Assembly (NCBI GenBank): GCA_938045545.1
Contig: CALIBN010000017.1
Location: 64,112 to 128,111, forward strand
Direction of reading: 5' to 3'
DNA: 64,000 nucleotides
Source of the DNA: an uncultured archaeon
GTDB lineage: Archaea > Thermoproteota > EX4484-205 > JAAOZP01
A program made the translations under genes and the position numbers. Shown here piece after piece: positions 6,654 through 63,643 of this stretch. Each line of letters opens with the position of its first letter. The stretch's first letter is position 1. Under the pieces are notes generated by a model, which did no database searches, had not been told where the DNA came from, and saw nothing but the letters and a program-made list of their open reading frames with translations.

Positions 6654-7346
6654 TCATTTTTTAACTTCCCTGTTTCTTCTTACCTTAGCTAAGAACTCTC
6701 TTTTGAACTCTTTGTATTCTTCATTTTCATGCGACCTCTTATGCTCATCATATAATTTAAAGGCCGTGTAAACCGCTTCAACTCTTTTCAATACCTCATT
6801 AATCATCTGTTCTTCTGTCATACCCTTTGAGTCAAAGGACGACATGAAAAAGGAATCGTATCCAGGGTTTATATGGTATATCACTTCCACGGAAAACTTC
6901 TTGCCGATTTCTTAGCTATTTTGTCAGCCCATAATAGTCTTGTGAAAACACGTCCGTGGGGCTTCCTAATGTGCTTCTCGATATTCCTCCTATTTATAAA
7001 ATCGTCCAGTATCTCTTTCTCTTTTCTATCTATCTTAGCGAAGACCTCCTCTTTCTTCGTCTTGAACTCGCGTTGATGAAGCCTAACCAAAACCTCGCCG
7101 ACTTCATCCCCAGGAGCATCAAAGCATAGAGATTCTACTTGCACTCTTCCATCCTCATATTCATAGATGTATCTGCAACTAATGAATGCTCCAGTCCCTA
7201 TTTCCCACCTTCCCCGCGCCATTTTTTTTATTTTCGTCATAACACATTACATCTCTTGTTTCTATTTTAAATTGCTCAGTGTTTAGTTCATTCCTGAACC
7301 GCTCATTAAGATAGTTTTTCAACTTTTCTAGTAAGGCTTGACTCAC
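6654..7346 (-). pseudogene. Island 1 gene C: frameshifted hypothetical gene
   Basis: Three consecutive minus-strand reading frames look like one gene of about 230 residues. The first (GTG at 7346, ribosome site AGGAGG just upstream) runs to 7179 and starts SQALLEKLKNYLNERF. It passes into the second frame (about 7240-6881, RGRWEIGTGAFISCRYIYEYEDG) at a run of eight A/T bases near 7222-7229. The third frame (6890-6654, VEVIYHINPGYDSFF) overlaps the end of the second by ten bases and ends in a charged helix, EEYKEFKREFLAKVRR. No family is recognised. Alternatives are two or three separate overlapping small genes, or slippage at the A8 run producing one protein. A loose resemblance in layout to gene C of island 2 cannot be confirmed by eye. 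Confidence 0.45.
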
Positions 7347-7423: not shown

Positions 7424-8750
7424 CTATGAATGGATTCTTGTAATTACCACGAACTCTGGGTAAACATCATCTAAGAGTAAGTGCACAGGGTCATAGGCAA
7501 GTGAAGCTGCAATTCCGGCGTAAGCATTCAGGTTTTCTCCAATATGATTCTTAAGATCAGCTATTGCCCTTTCCATTTGTTCCCTAAACTGGCCCACATT
7601 ATCTGCTAGCGTTGTACTCCCAACCTCCACAATTACGATTTTAGTTTCTTTAGGAATAGTTTTCCCTTCTATAACTATCTCCTTATTTGTAATCACATAG
7701 ATATCAGGAAATCCAGGTCTTCCATATCCTTCTCCGCTAGGCTCCAATCTCAAACTATCTGGGGAGATTTTATATGCTTCAGCAAACTTAGCAAGAATAC
7801 TGTCCTTATACTTCTCTCTAAGCGTAATTTCGCCAACCACCCCTATTTGCCATTTATGTGCTTCTGGGTCCTCTATTATGTTGCAGAGCATCATCTTTAC
7901 CTTTATCTTCGAAGACTCTTCTAAAGAAACTATGTGTACTGTTTTTAATGTTTTGGCTTCCTGGGATACATGGACTGCTAGCCTTTTGTTTCCGCAATAC
8001 TTAACGCCGTTGTCGTAATCAGCGATTATTACAAGCCTGTCTTCAGCGTCTACGCCCTCCCTCATTCTGCTTACCAATTCTTGGTAGGCATCATACCCGA
8101 GTTTTCTGAATAGCTTCTCCTTTAAATTAAGTTGCGTCTGATCTTTAATCTCCTCGTTAAGCTCTACTACCAGCTTGCCGCCATACAGTTGAAGAGGTTC
8201 CAGCTTAATGCTGTATTCTCCTACACTTGGTTTTGCTTCTCGAACGTATATGAACCTTATTACTCCGTCTTTATCAAGCTCGATGTCAGTTACAGGATAA
8301 CCTGTTTCTGAACTAGAGCTCCAGACTTTTATGACTTTATTCTCGTAGAGTACTAGTTTAAGTGTTTCGCCATCGATGTTCTTAGCCCTTATCTCCACCC
8401 TAGCACAAACTTTTCCATCCGCGCACCATTTCTTCTCAACTTTGGATTCAATTTCTTTCCCATCTATGCTTATTTTCATGTTTGCATAGTCAAAAATCAT
8501 CCTCTTACCTGCGACTGAGAATTCGTTTGGAAAAAGGTTTCAAAATCATACTCGTAAATCTCTAGACTGGCTATCTCTTTTTCAGCTACGCTGTCTACGC
8601 CTTCCAAGTATTTATGGGGTACATTGAGCCACAAAGATTCTTCCTCTACGCTGAATGCAAATTCTACTTCCTTTCCTCCCTCCAGCCTGAGCCTTGCTAT
8701 ATAGATTCCCTTACTTATCCTATCCTTAAGATTATTACACCGTTTTTAGT
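7424..8750 (-). pseudogene. Island 1 gene B: PD-(D/E)XK-like protein, frameshifted
   Basis: The main frame (8500-7424) gives 358 residues. The frame upstream, from about 8718 to 8504, gives KGIYIARLRLEGGKEVEFAF and matches the N-terminus of island 2 gene B (KRVYIARVYWQHG), so the gene is broken by a frameshift near 8500. Shared segments with the other copy: KLGYDAYQE/LLGYEAYG, DYDNGV/EYDNGK, and a C-terminal SLAYDP/ILGYNP. The C-terminal domain contains FPDIYV (near 7703), then 25 residues, then VEVGS (7619-7627). This matches a PD-(D/E)XK core in which the lysine is now glycine. Function unknown; a DNA-cleaving or DNA-binding ancestor is inferred. Confidence 0.5.
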
Positions 8751-59970: not shown

Positions 59971-59993
59971 CTTCCGTTGGTAAATTGCGCGCG

Positions 59994-61326
59994 CGCAGGA
60001 GCCCGCAGTTGGAGACGTTGTCCTCGAGCTCGTTAAAGATGGCAGGGTCGTCGCAGGGGTGAGGGTTTCACTCGTGCTTAAGGCGACGATGTTCTGGAAG
60101 GGCTTCTGGGATGGTCTGGCAACGAAGCTCCCCGGAATATAGATCACCGCTGGCGTAATGATCGCCATGGGCTTCTTGATTCCCCACGCCTACATTAGAC
60201 CAGCGTACTATCTCCTTTTGGGCCTAGGAGTGCTATCGAACATACTTGAAGTAACTTCGGACATCGCAGAAGCCAATAGGGCCAAGCCGAGATGCTTGCC
60301 TTAGCTGAGGCCTTCGAGAACCGTTCGAAGGAATTTACAGCTAGAGGCGAGGCTGAACATGCTGCCGAAAGCGTGGGCTTTGCGCTCACGTTAAGGAGAG
60401 AGGTTAACGAGACGATGAACAATCTATTGCTGAACGTTATCTCAGACCTCACCATAGCGATAAGCTTTGATGAGATAAGGATAGCCCTTGGATTGAAGGA
60501 GCCCCTAGCCAGAGACGAGTTTGAGAGACAATATAAGATAGGTTATGCTAGGGGGAGGGTTACTGGCACAGTCATTTCGTGCATGCTTTACGTAACCCTG
60601 CTGGTAATGGTTAATAGGATAAAGGTTGAGAGGATTGGTCAACGCTTAACAGCTGGCCAAGTCCTCAAGCTGATGGCGAGGGGATTTACAATTGGATAAC
60701 TCCAGCGGTATGGGACGCCGCCGTCCTGATGTGGGGAAAGATAAAGGGCTTCACTAGCAACGTCATTGACCTGCTCTTAGGGAATAAGTATAGCAGGAGG
60801 TTTGGGGAAGCGGTTGGAAGCCTGCTCCAGAACGCGAGGGGAGAGCTGCCTAAGATTAAGGATACGCTGGACATTTCCTCAGGAATCTCGAAAAATGTCT
60901 TAGAGAACGTTCCGAGCAGGGAGAGCTCAAAGAAGATACTCGACGCCATAGGGGGGCATTGTTGAACGGTATTCCCTGGAGGAGCTGAAGGAGAAAGGTG
61001 GAACGATGGCGAGAAGCATAGTATCGATGTGGATCAAAGATGGTGACGAGACGATAGACAATCTGAACGATTGGTTAAACGGAAATCCCGATAAGATAAG
61101 GGCATTTATAGACGAGATACTGTTAGCAATAAAGGGGGATGCCACAAAAGATGTCGGATTAAAGATAGGGGACATCGCCGCCAATTACTTCGATATTAAG
61201 AGCAAATATAGCGAAGAGGCTGCAAAAGCTTTCCTCAATCTCATCTTGAAAAGTCCTGAAGAGCTGGAGAGCATATTGAAATCTCTTAAATGCAAAATCT
61301 TCACGAAGACACATGTGTCACATTAA
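59994..61326 (+). pseudogene. Island 2 gene A: broken helical/membrane protein
   Basis: About 440 codons spread over frames. PAVGDVVLELVKDGRVVAGV (a strand-rich domain) runs to an in-frame TAG at 60140, then membrane segments (MIAMGFLIPHAYIRP, AYYLLLGLGVLSNILEV). A shift near 60287 leads to MLALAEAFENRSKEFTARGE with another membrane helix (SCMLYVTLLVMVNRI). Shifts near 60693 and in a G6 run at 60951-60956 lead to helices VWDAAVLMWGKIKG, ETIDNLNDWLNGNPDKIRAF and SPEELESILKSLK. No start codon is in frame after the promoter. The C-terminal end matches the remnant in island 1. Family unknown. The first part may be a separate gene. Confidence 0.5.
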
Positions 61327-61343
61327 AGAGGGAGGAAGCATAT

Positions 61344-62840
61344 ATGATAGTATTAGGCGAAAGATTCGAGAAAAGAGTCTACATCGCAAGAGTTTACTGG
61401 CAGCACGGAGATAAGAGCAGCATCATAGAGTTTCCAATTTCGACTAGGGGCTCAAACGTGATTGCCATACCGGCAGATAAGGCCGATGAGATCCTAGACG
61501 CGATAGGCAGCAATGAGGCAAGGGTGGAGATGACCAAGATCGTCATGATGGATTATAGGCTCTCCTTCGTATCAAGCTTTTGGAACGGCCAGATAGAGCT
61601 AGACCTCTTCAATAACGAGATAATGCTGGGCAGAGAGCGATACAAGTGCTCAGTAGAAGCTGGTCACGGCAAAGAAGGGATCTTTGTCGAAGTAACCGTG
61701 GGGTCTAGAAATACGCAAGGGAAATCCCTTGTCCTGGTCTTCCACAGTAATGGCAAAGTAGCTGTGTTACACGCCGGGCATAAGTTTCCTCTTGAAAGCA
61801 TTGAGATAGATGCTGAGCACAACGCGGTGAAGGTGACTTATGAAATGGAGGGACAGAAACAGGAGTGCGTATACAGCCTTTGGTCTGGAATTGAGGAGGT
61901 AGTAGTAGACGGAAAGAAGATCAGAAAGCTGGTTAACATAGATAAACGGCTCCAGTGGGAGGAGAAGGTAGGGGAGAGGACAGCTATTGGCCTGAAACAG
62001 AACCTCCTCATATTATTAGGTTATGAAGCCTATGGGATCGTGAAGGAGGAGATAGGAAAGAATTATTTCATCGTCGTGGAGTATGATAACGGCAAGATAG
62101 CGAGTACCAAAGATGAAAGCATTGCCATCAAAGTGCCTGAGGGCGCTAAAGAGACGAAAGCGATATACGTATTCTCACTAGAGATATCTCCAGTAGAAGG
62201 ACATCCAACTTTACCAGAGGTAATAAAGAAGAAAGTAATAAATGCTCTCAGGAGGGTGATAAAGCATCTCGCTGAAGGAAGCCTAAGAGCAGCAGCCGTT
62301 CCACTATGGACCGCCGGAGAGTATGCTGTACATGTGAAGAGTAGTGACAGCATTCTCAATAAGCTCGGGAAAGCGCTGAATATCCCGGAGAATGAGCTCG
62401 AGGCATTCAAGAACGCAGTGAATGTCGAATAGCATGGAGAGCTTAATCCAGATAAGGGAAGCGCCGATATAATAATTAAGGCTAAGAGGGATATAACTAT
62501 AAAGGGAAGGATATTCAAATCCAATGATGTTATCGCGATAGTTGGGGTTAAAAGCACTGTTCGAATAGGTGTAGATGCATTTCCAAATGCATTCAAAGAA
62601 ATGTATGATGATGCTGTAAAAGGTCTCAGGGATCACATTAAGAACTATGGAACCGCAACGTATGGTGTTATAGTTATCCTCGGCTACAATCCCGAGATGA
62701 TGCTTTGGAGTATGCATATGAAGGATGAGCCGTTCTTCCCCGTCGAGATTCTTACTAAAGAAGGGATCTATGAGAATCCTTACATAGAGGTACTTCCAAG
62801 GGAGAAAATACTACCTCCTCAAGTAGGTCAAGGAAGCTGA
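61344..62840 (+). pseudogene. Island 2 gene B: PD-(D/E)XK-like protein with in-frame TAG
   Basis: ATG 61344 follows a GGGAGG ribosome site (61331-61336). The frame runs 362 codons to TAG 62430-62432 and then continues in the same frame for 136 codons to 62840. The part after the TAG matches the C-terminal third of island 1 gene B, so the TAG interrupts one gene. Segments: KRVYIARVYWQHG (N-terminus), LLGYEAYGIVKEE, VEYDNGK, then after the TAG SADIIIKAK, a D-x25-G-V-K core (62466 and 62544-62552) and GVIVILGYNPEMM. The acidic residue expected two before the lysine is Gly. The homologous core in island 1 has EVG. Nuclease function is inferred, and probably lost. Confidence 0.55.
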
Positions 62841-63643
62841 GGAGACGAGTAGGCTTAAAAGGCTCGAATCCGCAATTGTTAATGGAAATGATAGACCCTG
62901 GGCTCGAGAGGCGCTTCGTGAGCTCGATAGAGTACCTTCGCAGGATGAATTTCTTTAAAGAGTACTTCGACTTGACCTCCGAGGAGATATTCGAAAAGAT
63001 CTTGAATGGTGAAATAGATTATGAGACCAAATGGTTTGCAGAGAAATAGTCTGAGGGGGAACGGAAGTGGGAGAGGGAGTTACTGAAAAAGACGCTGGGA
63101 GCAGGAGCCCACGGACAATTTTTGAAGGAATCGCTTGAGAGTGGCACAGAATATTGGATGAAGGTCAGTGGGTATGAGGTAGACGTTGAAGTGGCGCGCT
63201 TTGATATCCATAGGGTCTTCCTCGAAGATCCGGAGACCGTCATAAGGGACGGAATATGTGAAGCAATAGTGGAGAAGCTTGCAAGAGTCTCAAGGGGCTT
63301 TTTCAGCCCGACGGATGTTAAGGGAGAAATGCTGGACTGGATGGGTGAGCCGCCGCCGGAGCTAAAGGAGGAGTTAAAGGGATGCATCTCCCCACAGGGG
63401 TGTATCTTCAAGGTGGACTTCAAGTTTAGGGGAAAGGAATATGCAGCGGAGTTTTACAGCAATGCGGATTACCTCCGCATGGACTCATTCGTGAGGAAGA
63501 TAAACGATCTCATAAAGGATACCGGATATCAATACTATTGGCCTCGCTATTTACATATAGAGTACTTAGTCTACATGGTATTTTCGGAGGATGAAGCGAG
63601 GAAATTGGAGAAAGAAAGAGGCTGGAAGCTCTCTTTGCACTAG
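62827..63643 (+). pseudogene. Island 2 gene C: broken hypothetical gene
   Basis: The frame from 62827 reads VKEAEETSRLKRLESAIVNG and RPWAREALRELDRVPSQDEF. A shift near 62955 leads to FKEYFDLTSEEIFEKILNGE and an in-frame TAG at 63047. The same frame then continues SEGERKWERELLKKTLGAGA and to 63643 (VDVEVARFDIHRVFLEDPET, YQYYWPRYLHIEYLVYMVFS). The intact part from 63122 is 173 residues. The full product would be about 270. No family recognised. Gene order A-B-C parallels island 1, but I cannot show that the two C genes are related. Confidence 0.45.

What the first reader, a model, noticed from the sequence alone, without database searches (positions are those of the whole stretch)
7619..7708. 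Reciprocal loss of catalytic residues in two PD-(D/E)XK-like cores
Island 1 gene B has PD, then exactly 25 residues, then E-V-G. Island 2 gene B has A-D, then exactly 25 residues, then G-V-K (62466-62552). Together they imply an ancestral PD-x25-EVK site followed by S-T and a long helix, the standard restriction-endonuclease-like core. Each copy has lost a different catalytic residue, so neither should cut alone; a heterodimer with one complete site is a speculative alternative.
Basis: partly seen in the sequence, partly recalled or inferred. Interest (0 to 1): 0.7.

Follow-up and report, generated by a model that had tools for sequence, protein, structure and literature searches.

The report
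Dead relics of archaeal nuclease toxins
The two damaged enzyme sites are remains of two broken genes from a large, previously unnamed family of archaeal proteins that look like swappable-tip nuclease toxins paired with protective partner genes; neither site is half of a working pair.

Summary
The second lies after an in-frame TAG (62430). Homologs confirm the inferred ancestral D...E-x-K site: across 43 scorable relatives the E is kept in 40 (18/18 long open frames) and K in 32, with E replacing K in 8.

Both loci are pseudogene relics. Intact homologs are 1552-1820 aa proteins in a three-gene operon: a membrane-anchored coiled-coil protein, a giant secreted or membrane protein ending in this PD-(D/E)XK-like tip, and a partner of about 195-246 aa. 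Giants up to 85% identical over about 1020 residues end in unrelated tips, and the partner family follows the tip, not the body (permutation p = 5e-5): the logic of a polymorphic toxin-immunity system. The nuclease family was found only in one Brockarchaeota genus.

The two window cores are not sisters (29% over 83 aa), each has a closer relative with a complete site, and each sits beside a broken partner gene. The heterodimer idea is not supported; ordinary decay explains both losses.

The parts
7424..8539 (-). Island 1 gene B: open frame (ORF 7424-8500) homologous to the C-terminal ~340 residues of a ~1560-aa giant protein; a 1-base deletion at ~7452 relative to the G070 ortholog replaces the native C-terminus
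7619..7708 (-). PD-x25-EVG core: P-D 7708-7703, E-V-G 7627-7619; the K position is G, shared with the G070 ortholog
7829..7843 (-). G-V-V-G-E segment, candidate motif I glutamate of the nuclease core
   Evidence: alignment
8530..8745 (-). Continuation of the same gene in another frame (SKGIYIARLRLEGG...), joined to gene B by a frameshift at ~8535
   Evidence: hmmsearch domain E 2.9e-10, profile positions 109-181, followed by 180-222 in the next frame
6654..7346 (-). Island 1 partner gene (family d1), broken by two frameshifts and by a recombination whose counterpart in G070 spans an extra ~0.9 kb; intact 227-aa ortholog in G070
59993..61314 (+). Island 2: middle of the giant gene (L035_2 residues ~754-1211) in four pieces in different frames, with an in-frame TAG at 60140
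61290..62432 (+). Island 2: 380-aa open frame, C-terminal beta region of the giant protein, ended by TAG 62430-62432
62433..62837 (+). Island 2: nuclease-like tip beyond the stop, D-x25-GVK at 62466-62552
62888..63643 (+). Island 2 partner gene (family d3, otherwise seen convergent to its giant gene) with in-frame TAG at 63047

Best explanation
The two cores are degenerate remains of the variable C-terminal nuclease tips of a polymorphic-toxin-like family in a Brockarchaeota genus. In intact loci a three-gene operon encodes (1) a coiled-coil protein anchored at the surface, (2) a giant protein with signal peptide, ectodomain, hydrophobic FWxGFWDG helical module, and a replaceable tip with a D...E-x-K metal site that would cut nucleic acid in a target cell, and (3) a small soluble partner that would neutralise that tip. 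Tips and partners move together by recombination, leaving orphan or truncated cassettes. Island 1 is such a truncated cassette; island 2 is a decayed giant gene lacking its front ~750 residues. Each site carries a substitution (E to G in island 2; K position to G in island 1) that intact copies do not show. Shown here: homology, pseudogene lesions, body/tip swapping, partner tracking of the tip, conservation of D/E/K. Inferred: secretion, nuclease activity, immunity.
For: Long homologs of 1552-1820 aa with upstream and downstream genes. Swap: L118 and L033 are 85% identical over 1022 residues then unrelated; L122/L035 78% over 1191; L111/L112 75% over 1079. Partner family tracks the tip: 24 loci, permutation p = 5e-5; nearest body relative has a different partner family in 11/15, nearest tip relative the same family in 12/14. 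Site conservation: E 40/43, K 32/43, E-for-K 8/43. Single members hit many PD-(D/E)XK-clan Pfam families below threshold, best 2.8e-5. Lesions: frameshifts and TAGs; no PylS in the genus, so TAG is a stop. A second family (G193) has the same hydrophobic module with E/D-V-K-Y-W tips and ~180-aa downstream genes.
Against: No structure model could be made. No Pfam hit passes its curated cut-off, and hhalign to archaeal Hjc was weak (best probability 57%). Secretion and topology rest on hydropathy only. No toxicity or immunity data. Island 1's core and partner show dN/dS about 0.2 against G070 (pooled p = 0.0002), so they were under constraint for part of the time after that split although the EVG site was already present.
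Confidence: 0.75

Rival explanations
1. The giant proteins are self-acting: a surface receptor whose intracellular nuclease tip kills its own cell, or blocks entry, when the ectodomain meets a virus or a foreign cell, with the partner as a restraining antitoxin.
For: Signal peptide, long ectodomain and hydrophobic helices before the tip fit a membrane receptor with a cytoplasmic tip; a surface-anchored companion gene precedes it.
Against: Bodies and tips are exchanged with the partner following the tip, typical of weapons under rival-driven selection; no PADLOC match.
Confidence: 0.2
2. A self/non-self recognition or adhesion module like VARTIG of Thermococcales, in which tip variability serves recognition and the nuclease sites are incidental.
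For: Large secreted protein with hypervariable C-terminus and variable downstream genes, as in PMC8416519.
Against: Here the variable part carries a conserved D...E-x-K site rather than Ig domains only; Pfam clan hits are nucleases.
Confidence: 0.08
3. One reading: two half-dead copies complement each other as a heterodimer with one complete site.
For: The two losses are at different positions.
Against: Both genes are broken by stops or frameshifts; the cores are 29% identical and nearest to different intact copies; intact homologs have D, E and K in one chain.
Confidence: 0.01
4. The island-2 TAG codons are read through (for example as pyrrolysine), so the gene is intact.
For: All three in-frame stops in island 2 are TAG.
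Against: No PylS over cut-off in any of 8 genus genomes, while one of the 14 control genomes does pass it; frameshifts also break the gene; other relics carry TAA and TGA.
Confidence: 0.01

Closest known systems
Polymorphic toxin systems with Tox-REase tips (Zhang et al. 2012, PMC3482391)
   Same: Constant body, replaceable C-terminal nuclease tip with a D...[E/Q]-x-K site, adjacent small gene that follows the tip, orphan cassettes.
   Different: Archaeal, with no recognisable RHS, filamentous-haemagglutinin, WXG/LXG or other Pfam trafficking module; a dedicated membrane-anchored coiled-coil gene precedes the toxin gene; the partners tested match no Pfam, NCBIfam or PADLOC model; one partner family is usually convergent.
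Predicted archaeal polymorphic toxins (Makarova et al. 2019, mBio; paper not held, known here from memory and from its citation in PMC8416519)
   Same: Large secreted archaeal proteins with variable C-terminal toxin domains.
   Different: Whether this Brockarchaeota family was included there could not be checked.
VARTIG modules of Thermococcales (PMC8416519)
   Same: Lineage-restricted giant secreted proteins with a hypervariable, recombining C-terminus and variable downstream genes.
   Different: VARTIG varies an Ig domain; here the variable end holds a nuclease-like site. PMC8416519 reports no close counterpart outside Thermococcales.
PD-(D/E)XK nucleases of the E-x-E type (BamHI; PMC4081073)
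   Same: E replaces K in the motif, as in 8 of 43 copies here.
   Different: Recognition, partner and context differ; no fold test was possible.

Membership tests
PD-(D/E)XK nuclease superfamily | Conserved D ... (D/E)-x-K (or known variants) on adjacent core strands | tested here: met
   For the family: E 40/43, K 32/43 (E 8/43); D in 26 of the 34 rows with a letter there. Not met in the window copies themselves: EVG and GVK.
PD-(D/E)XK nuclease superfamily | Sequence similarity to known families of the clan | tested here: inconclusive
   Many clan families hit below threshold (PDDEXK_1 2.8e-5, PDDEXK_4 2.2e-4, NERD, HSDR_N, Cas4); none over a curated cut-off that was shown; no PDB sequence match.
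PD-(D/E)XK nuclease superfamily | Alpha-beta-beta-beta-alpha-beta core fold | not testable with these tools
Polymorphic toxin system | Conserved body with interchangeable C-terminal tip | tested here: met
Polymorphic toxin system | Adjacent immunity-type gene that tracks the tip | tested here: met
Polymorphic toxin system | Secretion or surface export | tested here: inconclusive
   N-terminal hydrophobic segment and later hydrophobic helices by hydropathy only
Polymorphic toxin system | Toxicity of the tip and neutralisation by the partner | not testable with these tools
   needs experiment
Known anti-phage defence systems (PADLOC) | Match to a described defence protein | tested here: not met
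Pyrrolysine-decoding gene | PylS present in the genome | tested here: not met

The most novel reading that the evidence does not exclude
A toxin tip with a lost catalytic lysine (E-V-G) is kept together with an intact partner gene in G070 under purifying selection (pooled dN/dS about 0.19), serving as an immunity-carrying or decoy cassette rather than as mere debris; active-site loss would then be a selected disarming step that precedes loss of the partner, as seen in the window.
Probability: 0.12. Interest if true: 0.6.

Novelty: new variant of a known kind. Interest (0 to 1): 0.45.

Why it matters
Polymorphic toxins are scarce and untested in archaea. This family is expanded to dozens of copies in one uncultured genus, shows clear tip swapping with partner tracking, has body parts without a known domain, and has a related body with nuclease-like tips in another Thermoproteota family. 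It gives concrete toxin-partner pairs that can be tested in the laboratory.

Tried and rejected
Heterodimer of the two window copies: rejected (both broken, distant, different partners). TAG readthrough: rejected (no PylS, frameshifts). hhalign against archaeal Hjc: weak for the C1 tip, 57% for the C2 tip, reversed controls under 1%. PDB sequence search: none. PADLOC and NCBIfam: nothing convincing for the toxin or partner. Weak single-protein hits in G236, G248, G250: not pursued as homologs.

Full report
Observation. Translation confirms both motifs. In ORF 7424-8500 (-) the P-D at 7708-7703 is followed by exactly 25 residues and E-V-G at 7627-7619. In the + frame of island 2, D (62466-62468) is followed by exactly 25 residues and G-V-K (62544-62552). 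The island-2 core is not part of the 380-aa ORF: it follows that ORF's TAG at 62430-62432 in the same frame.

What the genes are. The window is part of contig C17 of a 2.03-Mb assembly with 51 contigs. The genome with the orthologous locus (G070, the same contig as L006) is titled Candidatus Brockarchaeota. Searching the phylum found convincing homologs only in the same genus, and the best of these are in open frames of about 1550-1690 aa, not 358 aa. They sit in an operon: a 378-449 aa protein with signal peptide, coiled coil and C-terminal hydrophobic segment; the giant protein; and a small gene of about 195-246 aa. The window genes are fragments of such loci.

Both loci are broken. Island 1: the gene-B frame continues upstream in another frame (8745-8530) across a frameshift at ~8535; its C-terminus is changed by a 1-base deletion relative to G070, and its partner gene is broken by two frameshifts and a recombination. 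Island 2: tblastn with L035_2 matches residues 754-1686 in pieces in three frames, with TAG at 60140 and 62430; the partner gene has TAG at 63047. There is no PylS over cut-off in the genus, so TAG is a stop here.

Are D, E and K conserved? An alignment of 47 related segments gives E in 40 of 43 scorable rows and in all 18 long open frames; K in 32, E in 8, G in 2 (island 1 and its G070 ortholog), T in 1. E-x-E is a recurrent variant here and the form found in BamHI; PMC4081073 lists E, Q and N as replacements of K in active enzymes, not G. The E-to-G change in island 2 needs one transition (GAG to GGG). The island-1 G predates the split from G070.

The two cores are not a pair. Island 1's tip is nearest (after its G070 ortholog) to L033, island 2's to L035; they share 29% over 83 aa with each other. 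Their partner genes belong to unrelated families, d1 and d3.

A polymorphic system. Giants with 65-85% identical bodies over about 1020-1190 residues end in unrelated tips. Tip types include E-V-K-S-T, E-C-K-H-G, E-V-K-Y-W and E-V-K-T-G forms. Three unrelated partner families follow the tip type (24 loci, permutation p = 5e-5); the nearest body relative has a different partner family in 11 of 15 cases and the nearest tip relative the same in 12 of 14. Related loci are not independent samples, so the p value is a guide. Another Thermoproteota family (G193) has the same FWxGFWDG hydrophobic module with other ectodomains, E/D-V-K-Y-W tips and ~180-aa downstream genes.

Nuclease identity. Individually scanned tips hit many PD-(D/E)XK-clan Pfam models below threshold, best 2.8e-5; PDB sequence search was empty, and profile comparison with Hjc was weak. 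The fold is therefore likely but untested.

Selection. Against G070, the island-1 core has 7 nonsynonymous and 8 synonymous differences over 184 codons, and the partner 2 and 4 over 139 codons; pooled Fisher p = 0.0002. Constraint persisted for part of the time since the split, either before the G000 frameshifts or in the G070 lineage. The counts are small.

How it most likely works (inference except where cited). The giant protein is exported, presented at the cell surface with its coiled-coil companion, and its tip is delivered into a neighbouring cell through the hydrophobic module, where it cuts nucleic acid; the partner protects the producer. The swap of tip with partner and the conserved metal site are shown; export, delivery, cutting and protection are inferred.

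Conclusion. The finding is best read as two relics of an archaeal polymorphic nuclease-toxin-like family that no library tested here names.

Noticed in passing
L169:3675-6884 and L170:3385-8673 (genome G193): Another Thermoproteota family has the FWxGFWDG hydrophobic module with different ectodomains and E/D-V-K-Y-W nuclease-like tips, each with a ~180-aa gene downstream.
   Followed up: partly
window 60140, 62430, 63047: All three in-frame stops of the island-2 relics are TAG; no PylS was found in the genus, so this looks like chance.
   Followed up: yes
L126, L127, L128, L129: A second class of giants of 2339-2445 aa, with a 489-546 aa upstream gene in three of the four and the same kinds of tips; L126 and L128 are 62% identical over 2129 residues but end in different tip types.
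   Followed up: partly
L032, L043, L044, L113, L129, L130, L131, L133: E-x-E instead of E-x-K in otherwise conserved tips; L032 is in a complete three-gene operon.
   Followed up: partly
G000:C17:12946-13462 (outside the window, same contig): Remains of the upstream companion gene with a TAG stop: another relic locus.
   Followed up: no
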